From positions 3,348,001 through 3,412,000 of the forward strand of contig NZ_CP013926.1 of the NCBI RefSeq assembly GCF_001562115.1: a stretch of 64,000 nt of DNA, written 5' to 3'. Positions 9,002 through 38,738 of this stretch are shown here, one piece after another. A program made the translations under genes and the position numbers. The notes beneath the pieces were generated by a model that was not told the origin of the DNA, searched no databases, and saw only the letters and a list, made by a program, of their open reading frames with translations. Source of the DNA: Alteromonas stellipolaris. Lineage in GTDB: Bacteria; Pseudomonadota; Gammaproteobacteria; Enterobacterales; Alteromonadaceae. Within the stretch, counting starts at the first letter, position 1. Each line of letters opens with the position of its first letter.

Positions 9002-9003
9002 TT

Positions 9004-15756: not shown

Positions 15757-15794
15757 TATATGGCAGCGGAAAGTTCTACACCCGCTGCCATATA
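15757..15794. terminator. bidirectional hairpin between convergent genes
   Basis: A perfect 13-bp inverted repeat TATATGGCAGCGG / CCGCTGCCATATA with a 12-nt loop lies between the convergent LysR (ends 15702) and SDR (ends 15831) genes. It has no strong U-tract, so terminator function is likely from position rather than certain. Confidence 0.65.
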
Positions 15795-15830
15795 TACCGT
15801 GAAATTACACATATTAAGCTTGTAAGTCGT

Positions 15831-16523
15831 CTACGACGTTGGCATAACGTACACTTCCCGTACGCATGCCGAATCATTAGCTGAAAGGGCAAACAACACC
15901 GATTTGGCAATATCTTCAGGTTGTAGTTTGTCTTCTTTGGGCTCATCGAAAAATGGTGTATTAACCATACCAGGGCAAATAGTGGTGCATCTACCGCCCC
16001 ACTCTTTCATTTCTTCCGCTAAGTTTTGCCCAAAGCCATAAGCAAACCATTTACTTGCGCCATATACAGAACCTTTTAGCGCAATGCGTCCTGCTACCGA
16101 ACTGGTTAATATAAAGTGTCCTTTAGTTTGTTTAAGTAAAGGCAATGCTAGTTTAGCAGTGTATAAAAGCCCGTTTATATTGGCGCCCAGCATGCTTTGC
16201 CATTCTGCAACGTCGCCATTTTCGATACCAGCGCTTTTGGCTCCTGTACCCGCATTCGCAAATACACCATCTACCTGGCCGTAATGTTTATTGACTTTAC
16301 TGAACGCCTTTTCTAAATCATCGAAATCGCTCACATCGGCAGTAACTGCGAATGCATTTCCATCGCCAAGCTCTGCCACTAGGTCGTTAAGCTTGTCTTC
16401 GCTTCGAGCAATTAAGGCAACTTTATTGCCTTCATCTACCAACGCTTGCGCAGTCGCTTTGCCAATCCCGCTTGATGCGCCGGTAATTACAATAACCTTT
16501 GAATCTGTTTTCTGATTCGACAT
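15831..16523 (-). CDS. SDR family oxidoreductase
   Basis: 230 aa classical SDR: TGASSGIG (14-21), ANAG (89-92), Ser142, and Y154-x3-K158 (YGASK). The basic residue after beta-2 (ARSEDK) suggests NADPH preference. Starts at ATG 16523 with AGGAGTTGGA upstream. It lies 73 nt downstream of a DJ-1/PfpI gene on the same strand, probably co-transcribed. Substrate unknown; the context suggests reactive-carbonyl handling. Confidence 0.87.
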   Translation of the reverse strand: MSNQKTDSKVIVITGASSGIGKATAQALVDEGNKVALIARSEDKLNDLVAELGDGNAFAVTADVSDFDDLEKAFSKVNKHYGQVDGVFANAGTGAKSAGIENGDVAEWQSMLGANINGLLYTAKLALPLLKQTKGHFILTSSVAGRIALKGSVYGASKWFAYGFGQNLAEEMKEWGGRCTTICPGMVNTPFFDEPKEDKLQPEDIAKSVLFALSANDSACVREVYVMPTS

Positions 16524-16596
16524 TCCAACTCCTATCCAATCTATTTATTTACCCATCTAAATCTTTGCTAGTAAGTGCGTATCTCACCTACAAATC

Positions 16597-17148
16597 TTAA
16601 GCAATGAGCTGACTAATCTTCTCTACGAAAGCAGGAATATCATCAGGGTTTCGACTGGTAACGAGTTTGCCATCTTGTACAACTTGTTCATCTTTCCATG
16701 TTGCGCCCGCATTTATTAAATCGGTTTTAATACTTGGGAAAGAGGTAACCGTGCTATCTTCTGCCAGTTCAGATTCAACAAGTAACCAAGGCCCATGGCA
16801 GATAGCGGCAAGGGCTTTTATACGAGGCTCAGCGTGCGCTTGCTTTATAAATGCAACTGCGTCGCTATTGGTACGTAAAATATCAGGGTTAATTTGACCG
16901 CCTGGCAATACCAGCGCATCGTAATCGCTTGGCGCTACCGAAGAAACTTGGGCATCTACCGATATCTGTTTACCCCAATTGCCTTCATTCCACGCAGTGA
17001 TACTGCTTTGATCGTCAATTGATAGTATCTCTACTGTCGCCCCCTGCTCTGTAAGCATATCTCTTGGCTGCACAAGCTCACTTTGCTCAAAACCATCGGT
17101 AGCTAAAATTGCGATTTTTTTGCCTTCTAAATTTTGTTGGTTACTCAT
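16597..17148 (-). CDS. DJ-1/PfpI family protein (type 1 glutamine amidotransferase-like)
   Basis: 183 aa with the nucleophile elbow ALAAICHGPW (Cys117, His118), an acidic DGFEQSELV segment (Glu22) and LPGGQINPD, the typical catalytic set of PfpI/YhbO-type proteins. These act in carbonyl or glycation stress as glyoxalase III or deglycase-like enzymes, or as proteases in older annotations. ATG 17148 has AGGAGCTTC upstream. Upstream of the SDR on the same strand. Confidence 0.85.
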   Translation of the reverse strand: MSNQQNLEGKKIAILATDGFEQSELVQPRDMLTEQGATVEILSIDDQSSITAWNEGNWGKQISVDAQVSSVAPSDYDALVLPGGQINPDILRTNSDAVAFIKQAHAEPRIKALAAICHGPWLLVESELAEDSTVTSFPSIKTDLINAGATWKDEQVVQDGKLVTSRNPDDIPAFVEKISQLIA

Positions 17149-24226: not shown

Positions 24227-24460
24227 ATGCCTAGACAAAGTATTTCACTAACTGAAAAAAATGATGCTTGGTTAAAGCATCATGTAGAAGGCGCCAAAGA
24301 ATATGCTAGTAAAAGTGAACTAGTTAATGAACTGATTCGCCAAGCACGACGGAATGAAGCCATTAATCAAAAGTTAATGGATGTGGAGTCTTCCAGGTTC
24401 GTCCACCAATCGAAAGAACAGATACTAAGCGAATTCAAAAGTGTGCTGAATTCTAAGTGA
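24227..24460 (+). CDS. parD: ParD family antitoxin (ribbon-helix-helix)
   Basis: 77 aa: RHH N-terminus PRQSISLTEKNDAWLKHHVE, second helix SKSELVNELIRQARR, then a flexible toxin-binding tail. The stop overlaps the toxin start as GTGA, the classic coupling. It is predicted to bind DNA as a dimer and to neutralise the adjacent ParE. Confidence 0.85.
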   Translation: MPRQSISLTEKNDAWLKHHVEGAKEYASKSELVNELIRQARRNEAINQKLMDVESSRFVHQSKEQILSEFKSVLNSK

Positions 24461-24744
24461 GCGATTATAAGCTCTCGGCAAACGCTAAAGAAGACTTAAA
24501 ACGAATCTACATCTTTGAATTCGAGCACTTCGGTGAACAACAAGCTGATGTGCATTACGATGCGTTTTTTGATGCATTTGAGCGCATAGCAAGTAACCCC
24601 AATGCTTACCCATCAGTAGACAATATTCGTGCTGGCTATCGACGTTGTCCGTGTGGTTCAGATTCAATTTATTTTCGAATCCGCAACAATATTGTTGAGG
24701 TCATGGCCATTATCGGAGGACAAGATACGGACATGTGGCTCTAA
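24457..24744 (+). CDS. parE: RelE/ParE family toxin
   Basis: 95 aa from GTG 24457, which overlaps the antitoxin stop. The ParE fold is visible: YKLSANAKEDLKRIYIFEFEHFGE, a helical hairpin, then GYRRCPCGSDSIYFRIRNNIVEVMAIIGGQD. ParE members usually inhibit DNA gyrase; RelE-type RNase activity is less likely for this subgroup. The frame is intact, in a patch otherwise full of debris. Confidence 0.85.
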   Translation: MSDYKLSANAKEDLKRIYIFEFEHFGEQQADVHYDAFFDAFERIASNPNAYPSVDNIRAGYRRCPCGSDSIYFRIRNNIVEVMAIIGGQDTDMWL

Positions 24745-24902: not shown

Positions 24903-25499
24903 CTATATAAGCAATGCTTTTCTTTCGTACTCCGCAATAGCGTTTTCTTCCAGTAATGTTCTTCCTATTTTATCTACTCCAGTTATCAAATTTTGTTTAT
25001 GGTGAAGCGGAATAGCAAAACTGAAAACATCACTGTTAAAACGAACCTGCTGATTGCTTAAATCAACAAATACCAATTGGTTCGGATTCTGCCGACATTG
25101 CATTGCAATATCGTCAACCACATCGCGGGGTAACGTAATCGGTAAAATCTGATTATTAAGGCAATTCGCATAGAAAATATCAGCAAACCCTTTGGCTATA
25201 ATCACTCTAAATCCAAAATCAGCGATAGCCCATGGCGCATGCTCACGACTAGAACCACAACCAAAATTTTCACCTGCAAGTAATATTTCAGCGCCAGCAT
25301 ACACAGGGTCATTGAGCACACAATCTGGGTTCAAAACGCTTTCATTGGAGTCGAGGTAACGTACATCATGGAGAAGATGCTTTCCAAAACCTTGACGCGT
25401 TATTTCTGTCAGAAATTGCTTTGGCAGTAGTTGATCAGTATCCACGTTATTTTCTACAAAAGGTATTGCCTTAGATTCAACCGTTATTAATGGCTTCAT
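24903..25499 (-). CDS. leuD: LeuD-like hydro-lyase small subunit
   Basis: 198 aa swivel subunit of the isopropylmalate isomerase family: [13 protein letters not shown], the [17 protein letters not shown] substrate-loop motif and [19 protein letters not shown]. It starts inside the leuC-like stop (ATGA). Annotation would normally be LeuD of leucine biosynthesis. Here it is the last gene of a catabolic-looking operon, so a citraconate/maleate-type hydratase role is my preferred reading. No leuA or leuB is nearby. Confidence 0.85.
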
Positions 25500-26905
25500 G
25501 GCTGCCTCCTTAATAGCAATCTAACATCGGTGAGTTTACCTTTTAGTGCCGCACCAGCGGCCATGGCTGGACTGACTAAGTGCGTTCTAGCGCCTCGCCC
25601 CTGTCTGCCTTCAAAGTTTCGATTGCTAGTAGACGCACAGCGGTCGCCTTCTTTAAGCACGTCATCGTTCATCCCTAAACACATTGAACATCCGGGCAAT
25701 CGCCATTCAAACCCTGCATTGATAAACACGCGGTCTAGCCCTTCTTCTTCCGCAAGTTTTTTTACTCGCATCGAACCTGGTACCACAATAGCTTTTACTT
25801 GTTCGGCCACTTGTCCATTTAATACCACCGCAGCGGCTTCTCTTAAGTCTTCTATTCGACTGTTTGTACACGAACCAATAAATACATGGGAAATAGCAAC
25901 ATCGCCTATGTTCTGACCAGCGTTAATATCCATATAATGCAGTGCCTTTTGCATAGCGCTACTGTCGCCGTCAGAATAACTGTCAGGCAATTGAGGTACG
26001 GCTTCATCGATGCCGATAACTTGCCCTGGGTTAGTTCCCCACGTCACCTGAGGGGATAAACGAGACACATCAATGTCGACTGTTTTATCAAATTTTGCAT
26101 CAACATCTGAAAAAAGCATCGACCAAGCGGCTTTCATTGCCTCGAACTTCTCTCCTTTAGGCGAAAATGCTTTTCCGTCTAAGTAGCGAAATGTGACATC
26201 ATCCGGTGCAATCATGCCTGCTTTCGCGCCGGCTTCGATACTCATGTTGCAGATTGTCATTCGCCCTTCTATCGACAAACTCGATATCGCGTCTCCGCTA
26301 TACTCCACAACAAACCCGGTTGCACCGTCGTGTCCAATTTCTCGAATTAAGGCTAAAATCATATCCTTAGCGAAGACCCCTTCGGGTAGCTCGCCATTAA
26401 AATTAACCCGCATATTCTTTGCTTTGGTTTGACGAATGGTTTGGGTAGCTAACACATGCTCCACATCTGATGTGCCAATGCCAAACGCTAGCGTACCCAA
26501 AGCGCCATGGGTAGCGGTGTGCGAGTCGCCACACACCACTGTCATACCAGGATGGATAAGCCCCATTTCCGGCCCCATAACATGCACAATACCTTGGTGA
26601 CTATCTCCTACTGGATATAAGACGATATTATTAACTTGGCAGTTTTTAATTAATGTCTTTAACTGCAACGCGTTCTTTGGACCACATGCATCAAGACTCG
26701 TCGACTGCGTAGAAATGCTATGATCCATTGTCGCTATCGTTAAGTCAGGTCGTCTTACTTTTCTGTTGAACTGTTTTAAACCATCAAATGCCTGAGGTGA
26801 AGTCACTTCATGAATCAAGTGCCTATCAATGTAAAGCAACCCGTCACCATCAACTGAAGTAACAAAGTGCCTGTCCCAAAGCTTGTCATAAAGTGTTTTA
26901 GGCAT
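25496..26905 (-). CDS. leuC: LeuC-like hydro-lyase large subunit (4Fe-4S)
   Basis: 469 aa from ATG 26905 (GGACGACC upstream), matching the family length of about 466; an earlier frame opening at 27073 is not needed. The three iron-sulfur ligands are Cys346 (SCTNSR), Cys406 and Cys409 (GCSMCLG). [17 protein letters not shown] and [22 protein letters not shown] are conserved. It overlaps the amidohydrolase gene by 8 nt and leuD by 4 nt. Family members isomerise isopropylmalate or hydrate citraconate, maleate or dimethylmaleate. The neighbouring genes point to hydration of an unsaturated diacid. Confidence 0.87.
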
Positions 26906-27527
26906 GGTCGTCCTCCGCTTCTCTCTTAGCAAAATATGACGACACAGTGTCAAGACTGACAACTTCAGTATACTTTGCGTGTAGGTCGTGCAAGTTCGCT
27001 TTGTGAGCGTCAATGTTTCTGTCTCCGCAGGCTTCTTCGACCACCCATACAGGAAAATTACACGACAATGCATCTACTGCGGTTGCGCGAACGCAACCGC
27101 TGGTTGTTAAGCCACACACCACTACGCTGTCCACCCCGCCGGCTTTTAACTTCTCGTTTAGCTGGGTGCCAAAAAAAGCACTTGGGGCGGTTTTCTCAAT
27201 TAACGTAGCATTATCAGAAAACGATAGGCGGGGGTCTATCTCAACCCACCGGCTACCTCGAGCAAGCATATCTAAGTCAGGCAAATGCTGTCTGAACACC
27301 GATTGCTGGCTGTCGTTGTCATACACAACTGTGGAGAAATAAACGGGTAAGTCTGCGCCATAGAAGTCCTGAATTAGTGCTTCAGCGGCGGTAATTTCAC
27401 TATCAAATACACCGCCAAGAGGACTTTCGGGTGACGCAAAGCCTACTGTCATATCGACAACAATTAACGCAGGGCGCACGCCAAAGACGACACCTTGCGA
27501 GAGTAAATCGCTACTACTAAGCTGCAT
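26898..27527 (-). CDS. isochorismatase-family amidohydrolase (N-carbamoylsarcosine amidase / maleamate amidase type)
   Basis: 209 aa from ATG 27527, one base after the hyuB stop. A TTG at 27542 would overlap hyuB and add five residues. Catalytic triad: Asp25 (ALIVVDM), Lys112 (LIEKTAP) and Cys145 in [15 protein letters not shown]. The TSGCVRAT form is shared by N-carbamoylsarcosine amidohydrolase and maleamate amidohydrolase (NicF), rather than by isochorismatases. Predicted to hydrolyse an amide or carbamoyl group and release ammonia, just after the HyuAB step in the inferred pathway. Confidence 0.85.
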
Positions 27528-27528
27528 A

Positions 27529-29394
27529 CTATTGTCTCGCAACGTTGAACGATGGTGATACAGGTGCGTCTAAGCCTGTTTCCTCTTTCGCTTTGGCTTT
27601 AATTTCTTCTATTGTTCCGCCACGATCAAACAGCGACACTTCACCTCGCTGTTCTTTCAATGTCGCTCGCAAGCGCTGGGTTTCGGTGTCGTTTACCGAA
27701 CCATTTTCAATCACCACACCGTATCGACGCGCGCCTTCTAAAGACACTAATCCCCTGGCGACATCATCGGCTACCGCATTGGGGTCACGATCAAATGGAT
27801 CGCCCCAACCGCCACCGCCCCATGTATCGAAATACAATACATCACCCGCTTTTACTGCAATGCCCTCACATTTGGCAGGCAGAACTTCTGTGCTGCCATC
27901 TTCTCGAATGAGGCGTTTTGTTGAACGTTTACCTGGCAAGCCCCCATTAACGCCCCAAGGGTAAGTTAACCACCTGTCATCATGAATAGCGATGGCGCCA
28001 TCACACAGGAACCGATACCCCACCGACAAGCCATTACCTCCGCGATGCAAACCAGGGCCACCGGAGTCTGGAATAGTTTCATACGTTTCAACACGTAGGG
28101 GAAAATACGCTTCAATAAATTCGTTCGGTACGTTAGTAAAACCAGGCCATAAAGAATGTCCGTCTGGCCCATCACCCACAGGCCTGCCTGGGATACCACC
28201 AAAGCCAATCTGGAAGAGTTGGAACCACTCTCCTTTATCGTCATACCCAGAATAAAACAGATGGGGAGAATCAGAGAAACCAGCTGCATTCATGGCATCA
28301 GGCGCACCTTGCCCTAGTAGCCCTCCCATTACGTCAAAGATACGGCCTAATGCGTGCGTTCTTCCCGAAAGGGCGGCTGGAAAGTTTGGTTTAAGTAAGC
28401 TGCCTTGAGGAATACGCACGTCAACTAAGTCATAAAACCCATCATTGAACAGTATTTGAGGGTCCACCAAATTGATAGTAAATGAGCCGAAGAACATCTT
28501 GAACATGTCTTCATTTAAGTAGAAATTTATTGAGCTTTTCGCTTGCGGATCGGTGCCTTCAAAATCAAAAATTGCCTTTCCATTTTCCCGCCACATCTTG
28601 CAGCGTATTTTGTATGGCCCCATGCCCACACCATCGTCACATAAATAATCTTCAAATACGCGAGGCTCTTCTGGCACCAACATATTGATAATGGCTTCCA
28701 TCGCAACATGGTTACGCTCGAGCATGATTTCCATGGTGGAATAAAACATATCGTCACCGAAACGCTCGGCTATTTCTTGGCAGCGTTTTGCCGCCGTTTT
28801 ACATGCTGCCACAAGTGCGTTTAAGTCAAAACGGTTCCACTGAGGCGTTCGCACATTGTGCAAGATGAGCTCTAATATATCGCTTTGAAGCACACCTTTT
28901 TTATAGAGTTTTGTGGGTGGAATTCGAATACCTTCTTGAAATATGGTCTCCGCTTTAATGGGTATTGAGCCTGGCACCATTCCGCCGTTGTCTGACATAT
29001 GACCAAACATGGCAGACCACGCAATGTGTCGCCCCTCTTTAAAGATAGGAACAAGAATAATCCAGTCGGGTAAATGAGAAACGGCTGCATTTGTCATGTA
29101 AGGGTCGTTGGTAAGGATGATATCCCCCTCTTCTAACTCGCCCTCAAATGCACTTAAGAAACCATGAATGAAAGAACCAAATTGCCCTACTACCATTTTG
29201 CCGTCTTTATTAGCAATCATGGGAAAGCAATCACCCTGCTCGCGGATCCCAGGGCTCATTGCGGTACGAAATAGCACCGCATCCATTTCCTCTCTGGCAT
29301 TACGCAATGCATTCTCAATGATATCCACGGTAACCGTATCAACGTCAATTCTGGTCAACTCAGCTGTGTTGGTTTGTTTAATTTTATTATTCAT
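27529..29394 (-). CDS. hyuB: hydantoinase B / oxoprolinase family subunit
   Basis: 621 aa. Signature regions: LRNAREEMDAVLFRTAMSPG, QGDCFPMIANKDGKMVVGQ, and the late SGGPGLHRGGNGLSVGYRF and GGGGWGDPFDRDP segments. A GGAGGCGTT ribosome binding site sits directly before ATG 29394. It pairs with HyuA 9 nt upstream. HyuA/HyuB pairs hydrolyse cyclic amides such as hydantoins, 5-oxoproline or caprolactam at the expense of ATP. Relatives carboxylate acetone or acetophenone. The substrate here is open; a cyclic imide is proposed from context. Confidence 0.9.
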   Translation of the reverse strand: MNNKIKQTNTAELTRIDVDTVTVDIIENALRNAREEMDAVLFRTAMSPGIREQGDCFPMIANKDGKMVVGQFGSFIHGFLSAFEGELEEGDIILTNDPYMTNAAVSHLPDWIILVPIFKEGRHIAWSAMFGHMSDNGGMVPGSIPIKAETIFQEGIRIPPTKLYKKGVLQSDILELILHNVRTPQWNRFDLNALVAACKTAAKRCQEIAERFGDDMFYSTMEIMLERNHVAMEAIINMLVPEEPRVFEDYLCDDGVGMGPYKIRCKMWRENGKAIFDFEGTDPQAKSSINFYLNEDMFKMFFGSFTINLVDPQILFNDGFYDLVDVRIPQGSLLKPNFPAALSGRTHALGRIFDVMGGLLGQGAPDAMNAAGFSDSPHLFYSGYDDKGEWFQLFQIGFGGIPGRPVGDGPDGHSLWPGFTNVPNEFIEAYFPLRVETYETIPDSGGPGLHRGGNGLSVGYRFLCDGAIAIHDDRWLTYPWGVNGGLPGKRSTKRLIREDGSTEVLPAKCEGIAVKAGDVLYFDTWGGGGWGDPFDRDPNAVADDVARGLVSLEGARRYGVVIENGSVNDTETQRLRATLKEQRGEVSLFDRGGTIEEIKAKAKEETGLDAPVSPSFNVARQ

Positions 29395-29403
29395 AACGCC
29401 TCC

Positions 29404-31485
29404 TTATTTGCCAGTCGATTCAGGGTTGCTTAACGGGTTAAGTAATAGATTGCCTACCGAATCAACGGTTGCAACGTACCCAGGGAGAACCACTGTCGTT
29501 GAGTCCATTTCACAAATAACAGCAGGTCCCTTCACCGATAATGCTTCGTGAAGTTTTCTACGCTCGTAAATGACTGCATCGTGGTAGCTGCCTTCATAAT
29601 AAATTTGGCTATCGGTTAACATGCAATCTTCAAGGGTATAGCTTGTATTAACGGGCGGATGAGTGGGAAGTGCTTTGCTTTTTGCGGTAGCGACTGCGCG
29701 CACCATCACAACTTCATGGCCCTCTTCTAACGCAAAGGTGAATAGCTGTGTATGCTCTGCATCAAAGTGCTTTTTAAGCAAAGAAAGGCCCTTATCTTCA
29801 AGATCTTGCTTAGAGAAAGGAACGCAAAGTTGGAAGGCTTGCCCGGTGTAGCGAACATCTGCTTCATAAGTAATAGTTTGCTCGTCCATCGAAATTCCAT
29901 CGGCGAGCAGGGTAGAAGATGCTTTTTCTGCTAATTCGGTTAGTACTTGCTTAAATGCATCGTCGGTGAGGTTGTCGATAAGCGAAACCAGTGTTTGGGA
30001 GGCCTCATCACGTACCTGAGTGGTGGCATCACCATAGGCACATAATACGCCAGGACCAGGAGGAATAATGGCAGGCCACGCTTGTGTTAGAATACCCAGT
30101 GCATTGGCGTGTAATGGGCCAGCTCCGCCAAAACCTACAAGGGCAAACTCTCTTGGATCAAACCCTTGCTCTACCGACACTAACCGAAGAGCACCGAACA
30201 TAGCTTCGTTAGCAATCTTAATGATACCTTCAGCCGCTTCTTCAACAGAAATATCCATGGCGTCTGCCACTTTTTTTACCGCCGCTACCGCAGCGTCTCG
30301 ATTGATAGCCATTTTGCCACCAAGCTGCACATCTGAAGGAAGATAACCGAGTACCACATTGGCGTCGCATACCGTTGGTTCTACACCGCCTTTCATATAA
30401 GCCGCCGGGCCCGGTTTAGCGCCAGCTGACTCTGGGCCTACGCGCAGTGCTTTGGTCAGTTCAGGTACAAAAGCTATGGAGCCACCACCAGCGCCAACGG
30501 TTCTTACGTCTACCGATGGTGCGCGAACCGTGACATCTCCAACACGGGTTTCTCGTCTTACCCGAGCCGTTGCATTTTGAATAAGCGCAACATCAGTAGA
30601 GGTGCCGCCCATATCAAAAGTGAGTATGTCGTTAAATCCACCTTGTTTACAAAAATGGATAGCCCCCGCTACACCGCCAGCAGGACCAGACATGAGTAAA
30701 TTAACGGGGCTTTCTGCAGCTGAACGCGCAGACGCCAGTCCGCCATCAGAGCGCAAGATAGACAGATGAATATCGCTGCCCATACGCTCTGTTAGCGCGC
30801 CATGTAAATTATCGACATATTTGGCTACTTCAGGGCGAACGTAACTGTTTACCACTGTGGTTTCAGTTCGCTCGTATTCTTGCAATTCAGGAACAACATC
30901 AGAAGAAATAGAGATTGGCATATCAGGGAAAACACGCTGTGCAACCGCTTGAGCTTGGCGCTCGTTCTCTCCGTTTACATAAGCGTTTATAAAAGAGATA
31001 GTGAGAGCAGTAAATCCACCTTTATCTCTTAATGCCTGTAAGCTTTGCGTGAGCTTCTCTTCGTCAAGGGCTTTAACAATGCTTCCATCTGCGCCCACTC
31101 TTTCACTTGCTTCAATAGTGAGTTCTAACGGTGCAAGCAAAGGCTTCTTCATGTAGCTTACCCAACCTCCAAGCCCCCCCGGACAGAATGAACGAGCCAC
31201 TTGCAGCACGTGCTTGTAGCCTTGTGTGGTAACCAGTGCGACACTTGCCCCCTTGCCCGTCAATACCGCATTGGTTGCAACAGTAGTACCGTGCATAACA
31301 CGAGCGATATCAGTAACATTAACACCTGACTCTTCACAAATACGGTCTATACCGTTAAGTACCCCAACGGAAGAATCGTGCGGTGTAGAAGGTACTTTTG
31401 CAGTAAAGGTTTCCCCAGATATTTCGTTAATTAATAGTAGGTCGGTAAAGGTTCCGCCCACATCAACCCCTAATCGATAACTCAT
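29404..31485 (-). CDS. hyuA: hydantoinase A / oxoprolinase family subunit (ATPase-fold)
   Basis: 693 aa. The N-terminus YRLGVDVGGTFTDLLLI and the later LTFDMGGTSTDVALI are the two phosphate-binding motifs of the actin-like ATPase fold, with VRTVGAGGGSIA and GFGGAGPLHANALG also typical. It starts at ATG 31485 with AAGGGGAAG upstream and overlaps the lyase stop (ATGA). It supplies ATP-driven activation of the ring carbonyl for its HyuB partner. Confidence 0.9.
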   Translation of the reverse strand: MSYRLGVDVGGTFTDLLLINEISGETFTAKVPSTPHDSSVGVLNGIDRICEESGVNVTDIARVMHGTTVATNAVLTGKGASVALVTTQGYKHVLQVARSFCPGGLGGWVSYMKKPLLAPLELTIEASERVGADGSIVKALDEEKLTQSLQALRDKGGFTALTISFINAYVNGENERQAQAVAQRVFPDMPISISSDVVPELQEYERTETTVVNSYVRPEVAKYVDNLHGALTERMGSDIHLSILRSDGGLASARSAAESPVNLLMSGPAGGVAGAIHFCKQGGFNDILTFDMGGTSTDVALIQNATARVRRETRVGDVTVRAPSVDVRTVGAGGGSIAFVPELTKALRVGPESAGAKPGPAAYMKGGVEPTVCDANVVLGYLPSDVQLGGKMAINRDAAVAAVKKVADAMDISVEEAAEGIIKIANEAMFGALRLVSVEQGFDPREFALVGFGGAGPLHANALGILTQAWPAIIPPGPGVLCAYGDATTQVRDEASQTLVSLIDNLTDDAFKQVLTELAEKASSTLLADGISMDEQTITYEADVRYTGQAFQLCVPFSKQDLEDKGLSLLKKHFDAEHTQLFTFALEEGHEVVMVRAVATAKSKALPTHPPVNTSYTLEDCMLTDSQIYYEGSYHDAVIYERRKLHEALSVKGPAVICEMDSTTVVLPGYVATVDSVGNLLLNPLSNPESTGK

Positions 31486-32402
31486 TTGCTTCCCCTTTTA
31501 TTTTCTTGTTGTTCTAACCAGGTTTTAGCATGTCCACCACGTGCTGTGCCTGTTAATGCCTTGGCTTTGTCCGACGCTGCAAGTAACAGGCCCATATCTA
31601 TGCCTGTGCTATAACCCATTTGTTCAACCAGCAGCACCACATCTTCTGTCGCTACATTACCGGTGGCGCCCGGTGCAAATGGACAGCCACCCAATCCCGC
31701 AATTGATGCGTCAAATTGTCGAATACCCGCTTCAATCGCGGCATAAACGTTTGCTACGCCCATTGCGCGTGTATCATGAAAATGGCACGACAATTTGTTA
31801 GCGCCAAACTCCGATACCATTTTGCTCATCAGCACATGTACCTGATCTGGAGATGCCGCACCAATCGTATCGGCCACCACAATGTGAGCAGCCCCAGCAT
31901 CTAATAATGCGGCTGATACTTTAATCACTTCATCCACGCTAATGTGCCCTTCAAAGGGGCATTCCCATGCTGTTGCAACATAAGCCTGCACTCTACGATT
32001 TAACTGTGTGGCCAGCGCAAGCACATCTGATGACATAGACAATGCTTGGTTAGTGGTCATACGAATGTTTTTTTCGTTCATCGTTGTACTTGCCGCCACC
32101 ACCAATGACATAAGAGGTACATTCAGTTCCACCCCAGTGCTAAACCCTCTTTCGTTGGGTATAAGCACTGAGTACGCCACCTTATCTTTGGCCTCGAGTT
32201 GATGAATGACCTCATCTGTACCAGCCATAGCAGGAACCGCTTTAGGCGATACAAAAGCCCCGACTTCAATGGCAGGTAATCCAGCTGCAACTAATGCATT
32301 TATTAATGCAACTCGCTCATCCACACTTAGGTGCTTTTTCTGATTCTGTAGGCCATCTCTGGGGCCAACATCGTTGATGATGATTTTTCCTTTCGTTTTC
32401 AT
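31482..32402 (-). CDS. HMG-CoA lyase-family acyl-CoA lyase
   Basis: 306 aa TIM-barrel enzyme. Conserved: NDVGPRDGLQNQ (Arg15, Asp16), the metal-binding HFHD pair (His207, His209), and GLGGCPFAPGATGN with catalytic Cys240, all as in HMG-CoA lyase. HMG-CoA lyase cleaves HMG-CoA to acetoacetate and acetyl-CoA. Homologues cleave related tertiary 3-hydroxyacyl-CoAs. Next to a CoA-transferase and a LeuCD-like hydratase, citramalyl-CoA cleavage to pyruvate and acetyl-CoA fits better than leucine breakdown. No other leucine-catabolism (liu) genes are present. Overlaps both neighbours by 1-4 nt. Confidence 0.85.
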   Translation of the reverse strand: MKTKGKIIINDVGPRDGLQNQKKHLSVDERVALINALVAAGLPAIEVGAFVSPKAVPAMAGTDEVIHQLEAKDKVAYSVLIPNERGFSTGVELNVPLMSLVVAASTTMNEKNIRMTTNQALSMSSDVLALATQLNRRVQAYVATAWECPFEGHISVDEVIKVSAALLDAGAAHIVVADTIGAASPDQVHVLMSKMVSEFGANKLSCHFHDTRAMGVANVYAAIEAGIRQFDASIAGLGGCPFAPGATGNVATEDVVLLVEQMGYSTGIDMGLLLAASDKAKALTGTARGGHAKTWLEQQENKRGSK

Positions 32403-33601
32403 CAGCGAACTACCTTTTTCTCAAATAAAAGGGCTAGCTCACTTTCGCTCATGCCAACTAAACCTTGCAGCACATCTCTTGTGTGCTCGCCAACTTTGGG
32501 CGCAGGCGAGAATATTTCGTCGGTGGTACGCGAAAACTTAATAGGATTACCCGGCCCTTTGGTTTTGTTACCATCACCGGAGGTAAGCTCAACCACCATA
32601 TTGCGGTGCTTCACTTGTTCATCACTAAGGGCTTGAGAGAACGTATTGACAGGCGCACAAGGAATACGCGCCGCTTCTAGCTTTTCAATCCAATAGTCAG
32701 ACGTTTGTGTTTGCAGTGTTTGGTTAAGGGTTTCGTCGATAAAATCTTTCTTCGCCCACCGTCCTGGCTGGGTATCGAATTCGGGTAAGTCCAATGCATC
32801 TATCTTCACCACCGTTTTTAAGTTTTGCCAAAAGTTATCGGTGATAACCGCAATGACAATAAACCCATCTGCTGTTTTAAAGGTGTTGTAGGGCACGTGT
32901 ACAAAGTGCGAATTGCCAATGGGGAATGGGTCTTTCTCTGACAGAAAGTACATTGTAGCCATGTAGTTAAGCAGTGATATCTGACAATCTAACATTGAGA
33001 TATCAACGTCTTGTCCTTTACCACTTTTTGCCCGTTCCAAAAGCGCGGCTTGGATTCCCATGACGGCAAACATACCGCCGCCTAAATCGCCAATTGGAAT
33101 ACCGGCTCGAACAGGGTGATTTGGATCGGTACCAGTGATAGACATACCGCCACCAGTAGCTTGTGCCACTTGATCAAACGCTGGACGTTTGAATTTGGGT
33201 CCGTTGCTACCAAACCCCGTAATTGAGCAGGTGATTATTTCGGGGTTTATTTTACTTAACTGTTCATAGTCGATTTTTAAACGCGTTGGTACACCTGCAC
33301 CAAAGTTGTTGACCACCACATCGGCTTTTTTTACCAACTCATAGAATACGTTTAAACCTTCTTCAGATTTTAAATCGATGCAGACACTTTTTTTGTTTCG
33401 ATTCAGTGTAATGAAGTAAGCGCCCATACCATCCAACGAATTATCGGGATCGGTTGCGAGAAGCTTTCGAGTGCCTTCCCCTTGCAATGGCTCCACTTTA
33501 ATCGTCTCTGCCCCTAAATCGGCGAGTATCATTCCGCAGTATGGCCCTGACAGCATATGCGTAAGGTCAATGACAGTAATGCCTGACAATGGTTTATTCA
33601 T
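32402..33601 (-). CDS. CaiB/BaiF family (class III) CoA-transferase
   Basis: 399 aa from ATG 33601, preceded by AGGATGAATTT; a TTG at 33625 is upstream but lacks a site. N-terminal LSGITVIDLTHMLSGPYCGMILADLGAETIKVEP and the catalytic Asp172 in GIPIGDLGGGMFAV define the family. Such enzymes move CoA from succinyl-CoA or acetyl-CoA to a carboxylic acid. The stop shares a base with the lyase start (TGATG), so the acyl-CoA it makes is probably the lyase substrate. Confidence 0.88.
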   Translation of the reverse strand: MNKPLSGITVIDLTHMLSGPYCGMILADLGAETIKVEPLQGEGTRKLLATDPDNSLDGMGAYFITLNRNKKSVCIDLKSEEGLNVFYELVKKADVVVNNFGAGVPTRLKIDYEQLSKINPEIITCSITGFGSNGPKFKRPAFDQVAQATGGGMSITGTDPNHPVRAGIPIGDLGGGMFAVMGIQAALLERAKSGKGQDVDISMLDCQISLLNYMATMYFLSEKDPFPIGNSHFVHVPYNTFKTADGFIVIAVITDNFWQNLKTVVKIDALDLPEFDTQPGRWAKKDFIDETLNQTLQTQTSDYWIEKLEAARIPCAPVNTFSQALSDEQVKHRNMVVELTSGDGNKTKGPGNPIKFSRTTDEIFSPAPKVGEHTRDVLQGLVGMSESELALLFEKKVVR

Positions 33602-33642
33602 AAATTCATCCTGATTAAAATTCAATCTTCGAAGCGTAGGGA

Positions 33643-36219
33643 TTAGAAGCTCATACTAAGTTCTAAACCGTAGGAGCGTAGCGCCGAGGGGTGAACAAAC
33701 GAGCCGCCGAATTCTGGCGCAGGGATCACCTCTTGCAAATAAGCCTCATCTGTTAAGTTTTTGCCCCACAATGCGACCGTCCACATTTCACCTTCTATGG
33801 AAATGCGAGCGTTAACGGTGCTATATGCATCACGCTGAGCGTTACTGAAGTTTTGAGAGTGAGGGCCGGGAGGAACACCGCCACCTAGCGTGCCGAAGAA
33901 ATCCCAGATAGTAGGCGTTTCTTCACCTTGCAGCGTATGGAAATGGGTTTCTCCCACATATTGATAATCAATTCGTGTGGTAAGTTGTAAGTCGCTGGTA
34001 ATCTCGTGATCGTAAGAAATACCTAAGGTGTAAGAGGATTTTGGTGTTTGTGGTGCTTCATTGCCGACAGAAAGTGGTCTGTTCTTGTTCTCGATGATTT
34101 CACTATCAATAAGCCCCATTCCAGCAAAAACACTCAGATTGTCGTTAACCCGATAATTAGCGTCCATTTCGAAGCCCTGAATTTCTAGCTCATCAATGGT
34201 GGTAACCGCTCTTAATAATCCAAACGGACCAGCGAAAAACTCAAAGAACTGGTTATCTTCAACTTTGGTGTGAAACACCGCGCTGTTCACTTTTAATCGA
34301 TTGTCTAAAAACGTTCCCTTGCCGCCGAATTCAATACTTGTGGTAATTTCCTTGTCATAGTTATCGGGTACGATAAGTTGAGCATCAACCGCATCACCGG
34401 GCGTACCGGCTCCACTTGCATTGAACCAAAAATCTAACGTGGCTTCAGTGCCGATAGAATTGAATCCACCACTTCTAAAACCAACGCCATAACTGGCATA
34501 AAGGTTTAGGGCATCGCTTGCTTCGTAACTAAAGGTTAGCTTTGGCTGCCACTGACTAAAGCTTTGCTCTCGATCGGGAATACCATCAGGGTTGGCCGTA
34601 AATGCAGGGTTGATAGGCCCTACTACACCGTCAACAATGGTATTAACATTAAAACCAGAGGCAGATACATTGGGTACATTATTTGCCACTTCTCGCGACT
34701 CGTTGTCATATCTGAGTGCGAAAGACACTTCCCATTTATCGTTAACGTCGTATTCAATTTGACCAAACGTAGATAGCACGGTGGTTGAAAACGTATCATC
34801 AAACAATAAGTCTGTAGGGTTTGGCCCGTCGGCCGGAACGTATGCTTGACGTAAGAAGCCTTGTCCTAAATCTGCACCGTAAGCTACAACAACATCTCTA
34901 TCTATATTGGCGAAATAGACGCCCGCTATCCATTGCAGGGGCGAATCTGTGTCGTTCGATGTAAATCTAATTTCTCCGCTGTAATCTTGTTGGCTTCGTT
35001 CTTGATATTGATAACCATCACACGAAGATGGCGTATAAGGTCCATATACGCCTTGAAAATCTTGTCCTGGTGGAAGCACTACAAAAGGAGATAGGAAATC
35101 GCCAAACAAGTCGCTTCTTCCCGCGCCACCGAAATCAACTGGAAGGTTATTTAATGTTGCACGATCGGTTTGGCATTGCTCTGTCAATTCATAGCCATAA
35201 AATGAAGCGCTTGTACCATCTGATAACAGATATTCTTCTAGATTGTTGTACGCAACCACGGTAGTGACATCAAATCCCTCGTTGCGCCAATCGGCTTTTA
35301 ACGAAAGCTCTGTGGTCTTTTGTTCATTTTCACCAGGTACGTTAAAAGCAAAGATAAACTCGTGATCATTCACGTCATTAAAAAACGCACTTTGACCAAA
35401 ATCTTCTACAAAACTCGGTAGTGCGAACACGGCGTTGAAGTTTATTGCTCCGCCTTTAGCCTCGCTGTACGAGCCACGAAAATCGTAAGTAAGATCATCA
35501 GTCGCTTCCCAAATAAGCCGCCCTTTGACCGATGTATCTTCTAAGTAATCTACCGCGTCATCACGCCCCAGATACACATTTTCATAAAAGCCATCTGTAG
35601 TTGAATGCGCTACCACAATGCGCCCAAATACATTGTCAGCAAGTGGCCCAGTAAGCATTCCAGAATAGCGCTGCGAATTGTTATTACCAACGCCACCTTC
35701 AATTCTGGCCTCCATCACGTCTGAGGGCTTTTCCGTTGTTATCAGAATGGCACCGGCAACCGCATTTCTGCCATATAGCGCCCCTTGCGGCCCTTTTAAA
35801 ACTTCAATTTGCGCAATATCAGTTAACCCTTCGTTAAAACTATTCGGATTCGTCTGCAACACCCCATCAACGACATATGCAAAAGTAGATTCTGCATCGC
35901 GTGTAGAAATAATTCCCCGGATATTTACTTGTGTATCACCCACGTTGGCCGCATCAACAATACTTACGTTTGGAATTAGGCTAATAAAATCGGAAGGACG
36001 CTCTACCCCCGCAGCCTCTAATTCCCTTGCTGACAACGCCGTTACCGCAATCGGCACTTCCTGAATACTTTCAGGACGCTTTCGTGAAATACTGATAATT
36101 TCAACGAGCTCAGACGTTGCTTGCTTTTCTTCTTGTGCAAAAGCAGGAATGGCTGAACTTCCTATGGTTAACGCGAGCGACACTTGTAATGCTAAATATG
36201 TTTTTCCGGTGGTTTGCAT
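33643..36219 (-). CDS. TonB-dependent receptor of the catabolic operon
   Basis: 858 aa. Signal peptide ends AFA (about residue 28). A plug follows with EIISISRKRPESIQEVPIAV, VDAANVGDTQVNIRGI and VLKGPQGALYGRNAVAGAILITTEKP, then a barrel ending in LELSMSF with a terminal aromatic. The plug style (SRKRPESIQEVPIAVTAL) is common among receptors for diverse organic substrates in marine gammaproteobacteria. Only 15 nt separate it from the regulator gene, and 41 nt from the CoA-transferase gene, so it probably imports the operon substrate. Confidence 0.9.
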   Translation of the reverse strand: MQTTGKTYLALQVSLALTIGSSAIPAFAQEEKQATSELVEIISISRKRPESIQEVPIAVTALSARELEAAGVERPSDFISLIPNVSIVDAANVGDTQVNIRGIISTRDAESTFAYVVDGVLQTNPNSFNEGLTDIAQIEVLKGPQGALYGRNAVAGAILITTEKPSDVMEARIEGGVGNNNSQRYSGMLTGPLADNVFGRIVVAHSTTDGFYENVYLGRDDAVDYLEDTSVKGRLIWEATDDLTYDFRGSYSEAKGGAINFNAVFALPSFVEDFGQSAFFNDVNDHEFIFAFNVPGENEQKTTELSLKADWRNEGFDVTTVVAYNNLEEYLLSDGTSASFYGYELTEQCQTDRATLNNLPVDFGGAGRSDLFGDFLSPFVVLPPGQDFQGVYGPYTPSSCDGYQYQERSQQDYSGEIRFTSNDTDSPLQWIAGVYFANIDRDVVVAYGADLGQGFLRQAYVPADGPNPTDLLFDDTFSTTVLSTFGQIEYDVNDKWEVSFALRYDNESREVANNVPNVSASGFNVNTIVDGVVGPINPAFTANPDGIPDREQSFSQWQPKLTFSYEASDALNLYASYGVGFRSGGFNSIGTEATLDFWFNASGAGTPGDAVDAQLIVPDNYDKEITTSIEFGGKGTFLDNRLKVNSAVFHTKVEDNQFFEFFAGPFGLLRAVTTIDELEIQGFEMDANYRVNDNLSVFAGMGLIDSEIIENKNRPLSVGNEAPQTPKSSYTLGISYDHEITSDLQLTTRIDYQYVGETHFHTLQGEETPTIWDFFGTLGGGVPPGPHSQNFSNAQRDAYSTVNARISIEGEMWTVALWGKNLTDEAYLQEVIPAPEFGGSFVHPSALRSYGLELSMSF

Positions 36220-36234
36220 GACTATCTCCGAACA

Positions 36235-38115
36235 CTAATTATTGTTGTGATTTATTGTTTTTAACCTTCGCCACAATGTGGTTTGGCTAATTCCTAAGTC
36301 CTGAGCTGCTTTACGTTTATCACCCTTCCATCGCGCCAATGCGGCTAGAATGAGTTCGTTTTCTTTTATTTTTATTATTCCTTTGTCTGCCAATACAGGC
36401 TGACGCCCCCCACTTAACTCTGGCGCAATTTGAGGTAATGCTGTTTGCAATCGACCAAGGTCGTTTACGGTATGAAGATAAGCCACGACGCGCTCTAACA
36501 CGTTTTCTAACTCGCGTATATTTCCCGGCCAGTTGTGCGCAATGAAGCTGTCATTGAGATGTTCAAGAATGGTTGATGGGCTGTGTGAAACCCCATAACG
36601 ATTTAATAGCTTTTCAAGCTTGTGCGCCGCAATGTGAAGAATATCGTCGGGGCGCTCGCGCAAAGGAGGAATAGAGATATTGAATACATTGAGTCGATAG
36701 TAGAGATCTTCACGAAACGCGCCTTCATTAACCATTTCCGATAACGAACGGTTTGAAGCGGCGATCAGTTTCAAGTCAACTTCTCGCTCTTGGTTTCCCC
36801 CCAAAGGACGGTAGCTTCTTTCTTGTAAAAACCTCAGCAATTTAGCTTGCTGATCTAGCGCCAGCTCGCTAATTTCATCAAGAAATAGTGCGCCGTTCTC
36901 GGCTTCCTCTATTAACCCTTTGCGACCACCTCGCTTTGAGCCTGTATACGCGCCATCCTGATGACCGAACAGTTCACCTTCAAACAACTCAGATGGGATA
37001 GCACTGCAGTTAAGGGCGACAAACTTGCCACCCGCATAGGGGCCTTGATGATGTATTTGTCTGGCAACTAGTTCTTTCCCCGTACCCGACTCTCCAAACA
37101 GCAATACGTTACTTGGCGATGTTGAAAACGCCTTTACCTGCTGCAACACCGCTTCAATCTCGTTAGATTGGTAAACTAAATCGTGGCGAGGAGACGCCGC
37201 TTGCTTCGAAGGCGTTTTTTTAAGTTTTTTGCGATAAAGTTGGTAAACAAATTTATTCGTACTGCCTTCGGATAACGTGTCTAGATGAAACCACCATTCC
37301 TCGCCGTTAATTTCACATTCGCCATCAGTTTCACGTTTTCCACCCCTTGGGTGAATAAGGGCATCTAAATCGACTTCTGCATTTGTACTTAGATTCAAGT
37401 GATGCTTAGCAGCGCTATTAAGGGTTAAGGCATCATCGCTCTCATCGACCATGATAATGGGGGTTTGAGATTTAGTGAGTAACCATGATACCAACGCTTG
37501 TTCTTTGGCTAACAAACGGGCTTTCTTAGCTTCGTCGATGGCGCTTTGAAGAGTTTTTCTACACGAGCGTTCTGTATAGATTAAGAATGAGGGAATACCT
37601 TTGCTATTCGCTAAACCACATACCAAGCTAGCTCCCACTACAGCTATGCCTTCAGACTGACTCGCAATATGAAACTGCTCTCTTGCTTGGTCGGCCGTTA
37701 AGTAAATCGACTCTACAATATCGATATTGAGGTGGGAATCAGCAAGTTTTGCTGCGCAAGATGCTTCTGCAAAAGAAATGATATGAATTGACTTTGAGAC
37801 CTTAGAGGCTTTTTCAACCGCTTCGAATACGTCCCATTCTGTTGTTTGCATCGATACTACTGGAATAGACAATGCAGATTGTAGATATCGCGCATTTGAA
37901 CCTGCGCTGACTATTACATCAGGGTCAAATTCTGAAATATGCTGTTGAATTTCTTTCGTACTTCCAACGATGGAATCTACAATCTTAAATTGGGCTTCAC
38001 CGACGTATTCAGGTAGCACGCTCCCCACCAGCTGGCTAAATTCGTTATAGCCAACGATAAGGATACGAAGTTGAGGCTGATCCAATCTTACCGATTTCAC
38101 GTTGTTGTTTTCCAT
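36235..38115 (-). CDS. sigma-54 dependent activator with PrpR N-terminal sensor domain
   Basis: 626 aa from ATG 38115 (GGAGAA upstream; a GTG directly before it is possible). Residues ~15-195 match a PrpR-type N-terminal sensor (DPDVIVSAGSNARYL, VVGASLVCGLA), then a PAS-like linker. AAA+ domain: Walker A GESGTGKE near 341-348, a loop-1 motif GAYTG near 388-392 instead of GAFTG, Walker B LFLDEI near 410-415. A Fis-type HTH ends the protein (KRKAAQDLGISQTTLWRRLKTI). PrpR senses 2-methylcitrate; this paralogue probably senses an operon intermediate. First gene of the operon, behind a sigma-54 promoter. Confidence 0.9.
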   Translation of the reverse strand: MENNNVKSVRLDQPQLRILIVGYNEFSQLVGSVLPEYVGEAQFKIVDSIVGSTKEIQQHISEFDPDVIVSAGSNARYLQSALSIPVVSMQTTEWDVFEAVEKASKVSKSIHIISFAEASCAAKLADSHLNIDIVESIYLTADQAREQFHIASQSEGIAVVGASLVCGLANSKGIPSFLIYTERSCRKTLQSAIDEAKKARLLAKEQALVSWLLTKSQTPIIMVDESDDALTLNSAAKHHLNLSTNAEVDLDALIHPRGGKRETDGECEINGEEWWFHLDTLSEGSTNKFVYQLYRKKLKKTPSKQAASPRHDLVYQSNEIEAVLQQVKAFSTSPSNVLLFGESGTGKELVARQIHHQGPYAGGKFVALNCSAIPSELFEGELFGHQDGAYTGSKRGGRKGLIEEAENGALFLDEISELALDQQAKLLRFLQERSYRPLGGNQEREVDLKLIAASNRSLSEMVNEGAFREDLYYRLNVFNISIPPLRERPDDILHIAAHKLEKLLNRYGVSHSPSTILEHLNDSFIAHNWPGNIRELENVLERVVAYLHTVNDLGRLQTALPQIAPELSGGRQPVLADKGIIKIKENELILAALARWKGDKRKAAQDLGISQTTLWRRLKTINHNNN

Positions 38116-38176: not shown

Positions 38177-38196
38177 TATTGCACCAGTTGTGCCAA
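38177..38196 (-). promoter_or_regulatory. sigma-54 (-24/-12) promoter of the catabolic operon
   Basis: On the minus strand TTGGCACAACTGGTGCAA gives GG-N10-GC, with a perfect TGGCAC -24 element and a GTGCA -12 element. The predicted start is near 38169, giving a 54-nt leader to the ATG at 38115. It would drive the activator gene itself and the eight genes behind it. Confidence 0.75.
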
Positions 38197-38348: not shown

Positions 38349-38738
38349 TTAATGCGTTTCACAAAGTTGCAGTATCGGACCGAATTCATAATCTAATGAA
38401 ATATCTTGCACATACCAGTTGTCCAACCCTTTACGCATTTCACTATTGCGAGGGTTTCCCGTTAATCCAGCTAGCGTTTTTGAAAGATCGTCACTACCAA
38501 ATGAAATGAGAAAAATACCTTCTCCTTTCTCTTCTAAAATCGACGCGATAATGCCGTTTTCATCAGTTGGGCTGACAAATACAAGCCACGTATCGCCTAA
38601 TTGGAAACGCGCCGAATTAGCCCCGCGGCTAGAGAGTGGCTCAAATATGGGTTTGGTATTGGTGAGTTTGGCGAATTCCGCTACGGCTTTATCTAACTCT
38701 CTGACTAGAAAGTTAATGTGATGTATGTTTTGTACCAC
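38349..38738 (-). CDS. VOC (glyoxalase/epimerase) superfamily protein
   Basis: 129 aa from GTG 38738 with GGAG about 10 nt upstream. The N-terminal IHHINFLVRELDKAVAEFAKLTN (His6/His7) and the C-terminal EFGPILQLCE Glu are the usual VOC metal ligands. The single betaalphabetabetabeta pair length resembles methylmalonyl-CoA epimerase-type proteins. It lies directly upstream of, and in the same direction as, the catabolic operon, but the sigma-54 promoter and dyads lie between, so it probably has its own promoter. A link to the pathway is possible but unproven. Confidence 0.75.
   Translation of the reverse strand: MVQNIHHINFLVRELDKAVAEFAKLTNTKPIFEPLSSRGANSARFQLGDTWLVFVSPTDENGIIASILEEKGEGIFLISFGSDDLSKTLAGLTGNPRNSEMRKGLDNWYVQDISLDYEFGPILQLCETH

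What the first reader, a model, noticed from the sequence alone, without database searches (positions are those of the whole stretch)
24903..38115. Nine-gene sigma-54 operon that reads like a complete cyclic-imide (methylmaleimide-type) degradation pathway
Seen: regulator, TonB receptor, CaiB/BaiF CoA-transferase, HMG-CoA-lyase-type lyase, HyuA, HyuB, TSGC-type amidohydrolase, LeuC, LeuD, all minus strand, with 41 nt or less between genes and ATGA/TGATG overlaps. Known: HyuAB opens cyclic amides with ATP; TSGC-type isochorismatase relatives include maleamate amidase; the LeuCD family includes citraconate/maleate-type hydratases; class III CoA-transferases and HMGL-type lyases activate and cleave hydroxy acids. 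Inference: ring opening, deamidation, hydration to a citramalate-like acid, CoA transfer, then cleavage to pyruvate and acetyl-CoA. Natural maleimides arise from chlorophyll, heme and bilin breakdown, an appealing source in seawater. I know of no described system with this exact gene set.
Basis: partly seen in the sequence, partly recalled or inferred. Interest (0 to 1): 0.82.

Follow-up and report, generated by a model that had tools for sequence, protein, structure and literature searches.

The report
Marine cyclic-imide breakdown operon (predicted)
A tightly packed gene set in a sea bacterium appears to open a small nitrogen-containing ring, remove its nitrogen and cut the remaining acid into ordinary fuel molecules; the gene set is real and recurs in other sea bacteria, but its exact food is unproven.

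Summary
The nine-gene minus-strand operon is confirmed at the stated coordinates: gaps of 41 nt or less, four overlaps, and a sigma-54 site before the first gene. A tenth, VOC-like gene is syntenic. Seven of 12 related unnamed loci keep the full order. A smaller core (HyuAB, CaiB, HMGL, amidase) recurs with shuffled gene order across marine Gammaproteobacteria. In 146 relatives, close CaiB and HMGL homologues occur in the same 11 genomes; 10 of these hold the close HyuB.

The genome has a separate leu operon and a separate leucine-degradation HMG-CoA lyase. LeuCD seems to have joined such clusters at least three times.

Best reading: HyuAB opens an alkyl-maleimide-type imide, the amidase yields an alkylmaleate, LeuCD hydrates it, CaiB adds CoA, HMGL cleaves to a 2-oxo acid and acyl-CoA. 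One relative has CaiB-HMGL-LeuCD near an amidase and a maleate-isomerase-superfamily gene, without close HyuAB. The substrate is not shown; hydantoin-type chemistry remains the main rival. My searches of held papers found no description of this set.

The parts
38180..38195 (-). sigma-54 type (-24/-12) promoter site TGGCACAACTGGTGCA
   Evidence: only match in the window, 80 nt before the regulator's ATG; 16 of 33 homologous regulators have one upstream
38349..38738 (-). VOC/glyoxalase-like protein, syntenic tenth gene, role unknown
   Evidence: syntenic in 9 of 9 loci with CaiB and HMGL; below the cut-offs of Glyoxalase_4 and methylmalonyl-CoA epimerase
36235..38115 (-). PrpR_N / sigma-54 activator, first gene of the operon
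   Evidence: PF06506, PF00158, PF02954; 422 bits to PrpR, cut-off 499
33643..36219 (-). TonB-dependent receptor, presumed uptake
   Evidence: PF00593, PF07715; syntenic in 9 of 9
32402..33601 (-). class III (CaiB/BaiF) CoA-transferase, proposed alkylmalate CoA-transferase
   Evidence: PF02515; close homologues in 11 of 146 relatives, each adjacent to HMGL
31482..32402 (-). HMGL-type lyase, proposed (R)-alkylmalyl-CoA lyase
   Evidence: PF00682; PRK05692 325 bits, cut-off 246; catalytic residues conserved 70 of 70
29404..31485 (-). HyuA, ATP-dependent ring-opening subunit
   Evidence: PF01968, PF05378, PF19278; ATP motifs
27529..29394 (-). HyuB, metal-dependent ring-opening subunit
   Evidence: PF02538; D55-H107-D110-H132 tetrad
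26898..27527 (-). isochorismatase-type amidase, proposed maleamate-type half-amidase
   Evidence: PF00857; VVDM, K117 and TSGC motifs
25496..26905 (-). LeuC paralogue, hydratase large subunit
   Evidence: TIGR00170 709 bits, cut-off 560; 66% identical to the leu-operon copy
24903..25499 (-). LeuD paralogue, hydratase small subunit
   Evidence: TIGR00171 226 bits, cut-off 116; 55% identical to the leu-operon copy

Best explanation
A sigma-54-controlled catabolic operon for a small cyclic imide of the alkyl-maleimide type, or for a larger molecule that yields one. The TonB receptor imports it. HyuAB spends ATP to open the imide to an alkylmaleamate. The isochorismatase-type amidase releases ammonia and gives the alkylmaleate (citraconate if the alkyl group is methyl). 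LeuCD hydrates it, as it would isopropylmaleate, to an (R)-2-alkylmalate such as (R)-citramalate. CaiB moves CoA onto it from a donor such as succinyl-CoA. The HMGL-type lyase splits it into a 2-oxo acid (pyruvate) and an acyl-CoA (acetyl-CoA). Where LeuCD is missing from the cluster, the leu-operon enzyme is assumed to hydrate. Shown by computation: gene set, operon layout, sigma-54 site, conservation, co-occurrence, paralogy to leu and liu genes, intact catalytic motifs. Inferred: every substrate, the order of steps, the stereochemistry, the inducer, and the roles of the receptor and the VOC protein.
For: Close CaiB and HMGL homologues occur in the same 11 of 146 relatives, always adjacent, 10 of them with the close HyuB. 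In 51 of 80 named loci with near-full flanks, CaiB-, HMGL- and amidase-cluster genes are all present in 34 and at least two in 40, with gene orders that differ between families. HMGL is not the leucine-pathway lyase and LeuCD not the leucine-synthesis copy: both have their own operons in the genome. LeuC beside HyuAB has at least three origins in the tree (window group, L034, the HyuAB-LeuCD-only clade). G073 has CaiB-HMGL-LeuC-LeuD contiguous about 5 kb from an amidase and a gene of the arylmalonate decarboxylase/maleate isomerase superfamily. In G173 a CaiB (71%) and HMGL (55%) pair lies beside an amidase and a PuuE-family gene, a family related to cyclic imidases (PMC9304392, passages). (R)-citramalate CoA-transferase and (R)-citramalyl-CoA lyase are known activities, EC 2.8.3.20 and 4.1.3.46 (PMC8307300, passages).
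Against: No substrate, transcript or growth data. LeuC lies in only 15 of 80 named loci, and 22 of 37 genomes searched have a single LeuC, so a dedicated hydratase is often absent. HyuA's best solved match is an N-methylhydantoinase and the amidase's is an N-carbamoylsarcosine amidohydrolase. PuuE itself acts on a hydantoin. No substrate-defining NCBIfam equivalog cut-off is reached for HyuA, HyuB, the amidase or CaiB. The TonB receptor hints at a larger substrate. The VOC protein has no place in the scheme.
Confidence: 0.55

Rival explanations
1. Hydantoin/creatinine-type pathway: HyuAB opens an N-methylhydantoin-like ring, the amidase cleaves the N-carbamoyl acid, and the other genes process the carbon skeleton.
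For: Best solved matches: N-methylhydantoinase for HyuA (435 bits) and N-carbamoylsarcosine amidohydrolase for the amidase (159 bits, against 105 for the next sequence). PuuE-family genes in related clusters match an allantoinase.
Against: The amino acid left after such a pathway gives no obvious work to LeuCD, CaiB and HMGL. None of the nine operon genes was assigned to an amino-acid oxidising family. The CaiB-HMGL-LeuCD set also occurs without close HyuAB.
Confidence: 0.15
2. Imide or lactam of a different skeleton, with CaiB and HMGL working on 3-hydroxy-3-methylglutarate or a similar acid rather than on a 2-alkylmalate; LeuCD then has another diacid as substrate.
For: CaiB scores highest against the succinate-glutarate CoA-transferase model (305 bits, cut-off 750), and succinate-hydroxymethylglutarate CoA-transferase is among its best solved matches. 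HMGL passes the HMG-CoA lyase subfamily cut-off.
Against: The genome has a separate liu-type HMGL. Position 212 is Arg in 70 of 70 cluster HMGLs and Tyr in 3 of 3 liu-type lyases compared; Bacillus HMG-CoA lyase 1ydo also has Arg there, so this alone does not decide. LeuCD adjacency is not explained.
Confidence: 0.15
3. HyuAB works as an ATP-dependent carboxylase like acetone or acetophenone carboxylase, making a keto acid that CaiB and HMGL process.
For: Same superfamily; HyuA matches acetophenone and acetone carboxylase subunits.
Against: HyuA is closer to hydantoinase and oxoprolinase (435 and 383 bits) than to carboxylases (280 bits or less). No third carboxylase subunit lies in the operon. 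The adjacent amidase is unexplained.
Confidence: 0.05
4. LeuCD is only a neighbour, for example a spare leucine-synthesis gene pair, and the pathway proper is CaiB, HMGL, HyuAB and amidase acting on an acid that is already hydroxylated.
For: LeuC in 15 of 80 named loci; the window's LeuC is close to leu-operon LeuCs (66%; tree).
Against: LeuCD overlaps its neighbours by 8 and 4 nt. LeuCD of separate lineages lies beside HyuAB or CaiB-HMGL.
Confidence: 0.1

Closest known systems
ATP-dependent HyuAB enzymes: N-methylhydantoinase, caprolactamase CapAB, 5-oxoprolinase
   Same: Domain layout, ATP motifs and metal tetrad (CapAB motifs from passages of PMC8453981).
   Different: Far below the CapA and CapB equivalog cut-offs (508 and 183 of 1000 bits); different neighbours.
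Nicotinate-type maleamate route (FAD hydroxylase, deformylase, maleamate amidase NicF, maleate isomerase NicE; recalled)
   Same: Isochorismatase-type amidase; in G073 also a FAD hydroxylase, an alpha/beta hydrolase and a gene of the arylmalonate decarboxylase/maleate isomerase superfamily.
   Different: The window has no such hydroxylase or isomerase in the operon; the acid is proposed to go to CoA-dependent cleavage, not to fumarate.
Succinyl-CoA:(R)-citramalate CoA-transferase and (R)-citramalyl-CoA lyase (EC 2.8.3.20, 4.1.3.46; Chloroflexus enzymes recalled as class III transferase and HMGL-type lyase)
   Same: Same enzyme classes, paired as neighbours.
   Different: Chloroflexus sequences were not compared here; the context here is an imide-type operon.
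Pseudomonas itaconate cluster (Ict, Ich, Ccl)
   Same: CoA activation and cleavage of a branched C5 diacid.
   Different: It handles the (S) series; [quoted passage not shown] The window's lyase is HMGL-type, not the CitE/RipC type.
Aspergillus HxnM/HxnN nicotinate steps (cyclic imidase, then amidase)
   Same: Cyclic imide opened, then half-amide hydrolysed (PMC9304392, passages).
   Different: HxnM is PuuE-like and HxnN is FAAH-like; here HyuAB and an isochorismatase-type amidase.

Membership tests
HyuAB (ATP-dependent hydantoinase/oxoprolinase) | Hydantoinase_A and Hydantoinase_B domains over cut-off | tested here: met
HyuAB (ATP-dependent hydantoinase/oxoprolinase) | ATP motifs in A (DxGGT twice, GxxPGP) and Asp-His-Asp-His metal tetrad in B | tested here: met
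   HyuA 8, 291, 355; HyuB D55, H107, D110, H132, aligned with five other HyuB proteins
Caprolactamase CapAB | NCBIfam equivalog cut-offs of 1000 bits each | tested here: not met
   508.5 and 182.7 bits
LeuCD isopropylmalate isomerase | TIGR00170 and TIGR00171 cut-offs | tested here: met
   709 of 560 and 226 of 116 bits
LeuCD isopropylmalate isomerase | Fe-S cluster cysteines ([15 protein letters not shown]; motifs recalled) | tested here: met
   C346, C406, C409
LeuCD isopropylmalate isomerase | Lies in or serves the leucine synthesis operon | tested here: not met
   A second LeuCD lies in a leu operon, LeuA and LeuB recognised by eye (L043)
HMG-CoA lyase of leucine degradation | Lies in the liu-type operon | tested here: not met
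   The liu-type operon, genes recognised by eye, has its own HMGL, 40% identical (L200)
HMGL-type acyl-CoA lyase | Catalytic Arg, Asp, Glu, two His, Cys, Asn (human numbering recalled) | tested here: met
   70 of 70 cluster HMGLs
(R)-citramalate CoA-transferase plus (R)-citramalyl-CoA lyase | Activity on (R)-citramalate / (R)-citramalyl-CoA | not testable with these tools
   needs assays
(R)-citramalate CoA-transferase plus (R)-citramalyl-CoA lyase | Sequence closeness to the Chloroflexus enzymes | not tested
   sequences not fetched
Maleamate amidohydrolase (NicF type) | Isochorismatase fold motifs with catalytic Asp, Lys, Cys | tested here: met
   shared by the whole family, so not specific
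Maleamate amidohydrolase (NicF type) | Activity on maleamates rather than N-carbamoyl acids | not testable with these tools
   best solved match is named N-carbamoylsarcosine amidohydrolase
PrpR propionate regulator | TIGR02329 equivalog cut-off | tested here: not met
   422 of 499 bits
Sigma-54-dependent operon | AAA+ sigma-54 activator with a -24/-12 site upstream | tested here: met
   transcription itself not tested

The most novel reading that the evidence does not exclude
The operon is the terminal module of an undescribed marine route for oxidised pyrrole or pyridine N-heterocycles, including maleimides left by tetrapyrrole (chlorophyll, heme, bilin) breakdown. Imidase (HyuAB or PuuE family), amidase, hydratase, CoA-transferase and lyase are exchangeable parts, and related species carry several paralogous sets for differently substituted maleates, each cut to a 2-oxo acid and an acyl-CoA.
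Probability: 0.2. Interest if true: 0.85.

Novelty: new variant of a known kind. Interest (0 to 1): 0.6.

Why it matters
If right, it gives a range of marine Gammaproteobacteria a complete route from a cyclic imide to central metabolism, assigns a role to HyuAB genes now labelled only hydantoinase/oxoprolinase, and gives a catabolic use to LeuCD paralogues that are easily misread as leucine synthesis. Maleimides from pigment breakdown would become a testable part of marine dissolved organic nitrogen.

Tried and rejected
Rejected: LeuCD as the only isopropylmalate isomerase. Rejected: the operon's HMGL as the leucine-pathway lyase. Rejected: the nine genes as a fixed unit; the core is smaller and the order varies. 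Considered and not used: loss of the Ser equivalent to human S75 as a marker of the lyase (Ala in 32 of 70, Ser in 38 of 70). Considered: VOC protein as methylmalonyl-CoA epimerase; below cut-off (27.5 of 115 bits), and by eye the alignment-free listing suggests changed metal ligands (recalled motif, not tested).

Control for the HyuB context: the five HyuB loci at about 30% identity (L038-L042) show no CaiB, HMGL, LeuC or LeuD match at E 1e-10; two amidase matches at 31-32% occur in L038. This is a small control.

Limits of the counts: the clusters used are single-linkage BLAST groups, so TonB, CaiB, HMGL and amidase counts are of homologues near HyuB and may include unrelated members. Many loci end at contig ends. 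The 92 loci include at least five pairs that appear to be the same genome.

Literature: 11 papers, 10 listed; 23, 20 listed; 0; 2; 27, 20 listed; 127, 12 listed; 2, incidental by listing; 0. I saw listings and abstract starts, and passages of PMC8453981, PMC9875883, PMC12290011, PMC8307300 and PMC9304392. No structure prediction or fold search was made.


Full report
What is there. The window holds nine adjacent minus-strand genes at 24903-38115 as described, with short gaps or overlaps at all eight junctions. Pfam and NCBIfam support the family names. The regulator carries PrpR_N and sigma-54 activator domains and is the first gene of the run; a -24/-12-type site starts 80 nt before its ATG. 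One match in 64 kb is expected by chance (0.87), but 16 of 33 homologous regulators have one upstream, against 0.115 on average in mononucleotide shuffles (several of the 33 are near-duplicates). A VOC-like gene further upstream is syntenic in 9 of 9 related loci that carry CaiB and HMGL.

Same genome. The genome has two LeuC-type genes at E 1e-60: this one and one beside LeuD (55%), LeuB- and LeuA-like genes (L043; LeuB and LeuA recognised by eye). A second HMGL, 40% identical, ends what I read by eye as a complete liu-type leucine degradation operon (L200). Neither LeuCD nor the lyase of the operon is thus needed for leucine metabolism.

Distribution. Among 146 relatives, HyuB at 76% identity or more occurs in 12 genomes; five further matches are only about 30% identical. 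CaiB at 68% or more occurs in 11 and HMGL at 50% or more in the same 11, always adjacent; 10 of the 11 have the close HyuB (thresholds E 1e-120 and 1e-80 were my choice; Fisher p 8e-13, not corrected for kinship). The three mismatches: G002 and G016 have HyuAB-LeuCD without close CaiB and HMGL, and G073 has CaiB and HMGL without close HyuB. In a sample of 369 genomes of the class 7 have the close HyuB, the window's own included, so the trait is patchy. Of these 80, 51 have near-full flanks: HyuA 51, TonB 44, HMGL 44, CaiB 40, amidase 37, VOC 21, PrpR 20, GntR 14, LeuC 12 (homologue counts, single-linkage). CaiB, HMGL and amidase are all present in 34 of 51, at least two in 40, none in 4; those 4 have LeuC. 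Gene order differs between families.

LeuCD. In the LeuC tree (60 rows), HyuAB-LeuCD clusters without CaiB and HMGL form a clade (8 rows, 100/99; L096 lies outside on a long branch). L034 lies among leu-operon LeuCs (100/97). The window's group (7 rows, 100/99) lies within the wider set of Alteromonadaceae LeuCs, its exact root unresolved. A third class forms its own clade (9 rows, 100/100), often near diverged CaiB and HMGL. I read this as at least three origins of LeuCD beside HyuAB; gene transfer could also contribute. Against a dedicated hydratase: LeuC is in 15 of 80 named loci, and 22 of 37 genomes searched have a single LeuC (some are incomplete). If the scheme holds, their leu enzyme must hydrate; isopropylmalate isomerase acting on citraconate is recalled, not looked up.

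Exchangeable parts. G073 has CaiB (68%), HMGL (50%), LeuC (55%) and LeuD (42%) contiguous. About 5 kb away, past a LysR regulator and a FadL-type porin, lies a run with an amidase (48%), a FAD hydroxylase, an alpha/beta hydrolase, aldehyde dehydrogenases and a gene of the arylmalonate decarboxylase/maleate isomerase superfamily (solved matches weak, E about 1e-10). In G173 (L203) a CaiB (71%)-HMGL (55%) pair lies beside an amidase (36%) and a gene grouped with PuuE-family proteins (the family search was run on the G002 members, all below the allantoinase cut-off, and the structure search on one of them). PuuE-family proteins are related to cyclic imidases; HxnM opens a cyclic imide ahead of an amidase (PMC9304392, passages). 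PuuE itself acts on allantoin, so this fits a hydantoin as well. In G174 the operon is split: VOC-PrpR-TonB-CaiB-HMGL in one place (L205), HyuAB-LeuCD in another (L085). In six genomes (G002, G016, G154, G173, G174, G175) the sampled stretches hold two LeuC, one or two amidase families, one to three PuuE-like genes and a FAD hydroxylase, most also diverged CaiB and HMGL.

Mechanism. An imide, unlike a lactam, leaves a half-amide, which explains the amidase. A maleate-type diacid explains an isopropylmalate-isomerase paralogue. A 2-alkylmalate explains a CoA-transferase paired with an HMGL-type lyase, as in the (R)-citramalate reactions EC 2.8.3.20 and 4.1.3.46 (PMC8307300, passages). The Pseudomonas itaconate cluster did not metabolise (R)-citramalate or citraconate (PMC9875883, passages), and the Cupriavidus itaconate CoA-transferase gave less than 1 unit with (R)-citramalate (PMC12290011, passages). 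HyuA has the ATP motifs and HyuB the metal tetrad described for caprolactamase (PMC8453981, passages). HMGL keeps the catalytic residues in 70 of 70. Counter-evidence: among solved proteins HyuA and the amidase are closest to hydantoin/creatinine-pathway enzymes, and no substrate-defining equivalog is reached.

Verdict. Observation confirmed. The scheme is likely (0.55); methylmaleimide in particular perhaps one in three. A pigment origin is unproven. My searches of the held open-access library found no description of this gene set or of bacterial alkyl-maleimide catabolism, but several listings were cut and most subscription papers are not held.

Noticed in passing
window 24227-24744 (+): Two short overlapping ORFs (77 and 95 aa) that look by eye like a ParD/ParE-type toxin-antitoxin pair, convergent with leuD; no family search was run.
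   Followed up: no
L231 (G073:C223) 3917-16680, with L233: Relative with CaiB-HMGL-LeuC-LeuD near an amidase, FAD hydroxylase, alpha/beta hydrolase and maleate-isomerase-superfamily gene, without close HyuAB; looks like a related N-heterocycle route.
   Followed up: partly
L154-L156, L035, L213 (G002:C15); L201, L159 (G016:C10); L160, L161, L085 (G174); L167, L168 (G154); L157, L158, L203 (G173): Catabolic islands with repeated LeuCD, amidase and PuuE-like genes, a methylisocitrate-lyase-type gene, FAD hydroxylase, DUF1838 and flavin amine oxidase genes; substrate unknown.
   Followed up: partly
L165 (G155:C57) 7095-12086: HMGL (51%) and LeuCD next to genes that look by eye like TRAP dicarboxylate transporter subunits: possible acid-uptake version of the hydration-cleavage module.
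   Followed up: no
L035-L037, L061, L070, L072, L083, L085, L087: A methyltransferase-domain protein and a small companion of no known family lie next to HyuAB in many loci that lack CaiB and HMGL.
   Followed up: no
L101, L103, L106, L107, L115, L119, L121: In Porticoccaceae/SAR92-type records a liu-like leucine degradation gene run lies divergent from the CaiB-HMGL-HyuAB cluster.
   Followed up: no
L030 5386-5965 (same gene in L112): The amidase of this Alteromonas locus is split over two reading frames: a frameshift or a sequencing error.
   Followed up: no
window 38349-38738: VOC-like protein with conserved synteny but no role in the proposed scheme; 34 homologues in the loci.
   Followed up: partly
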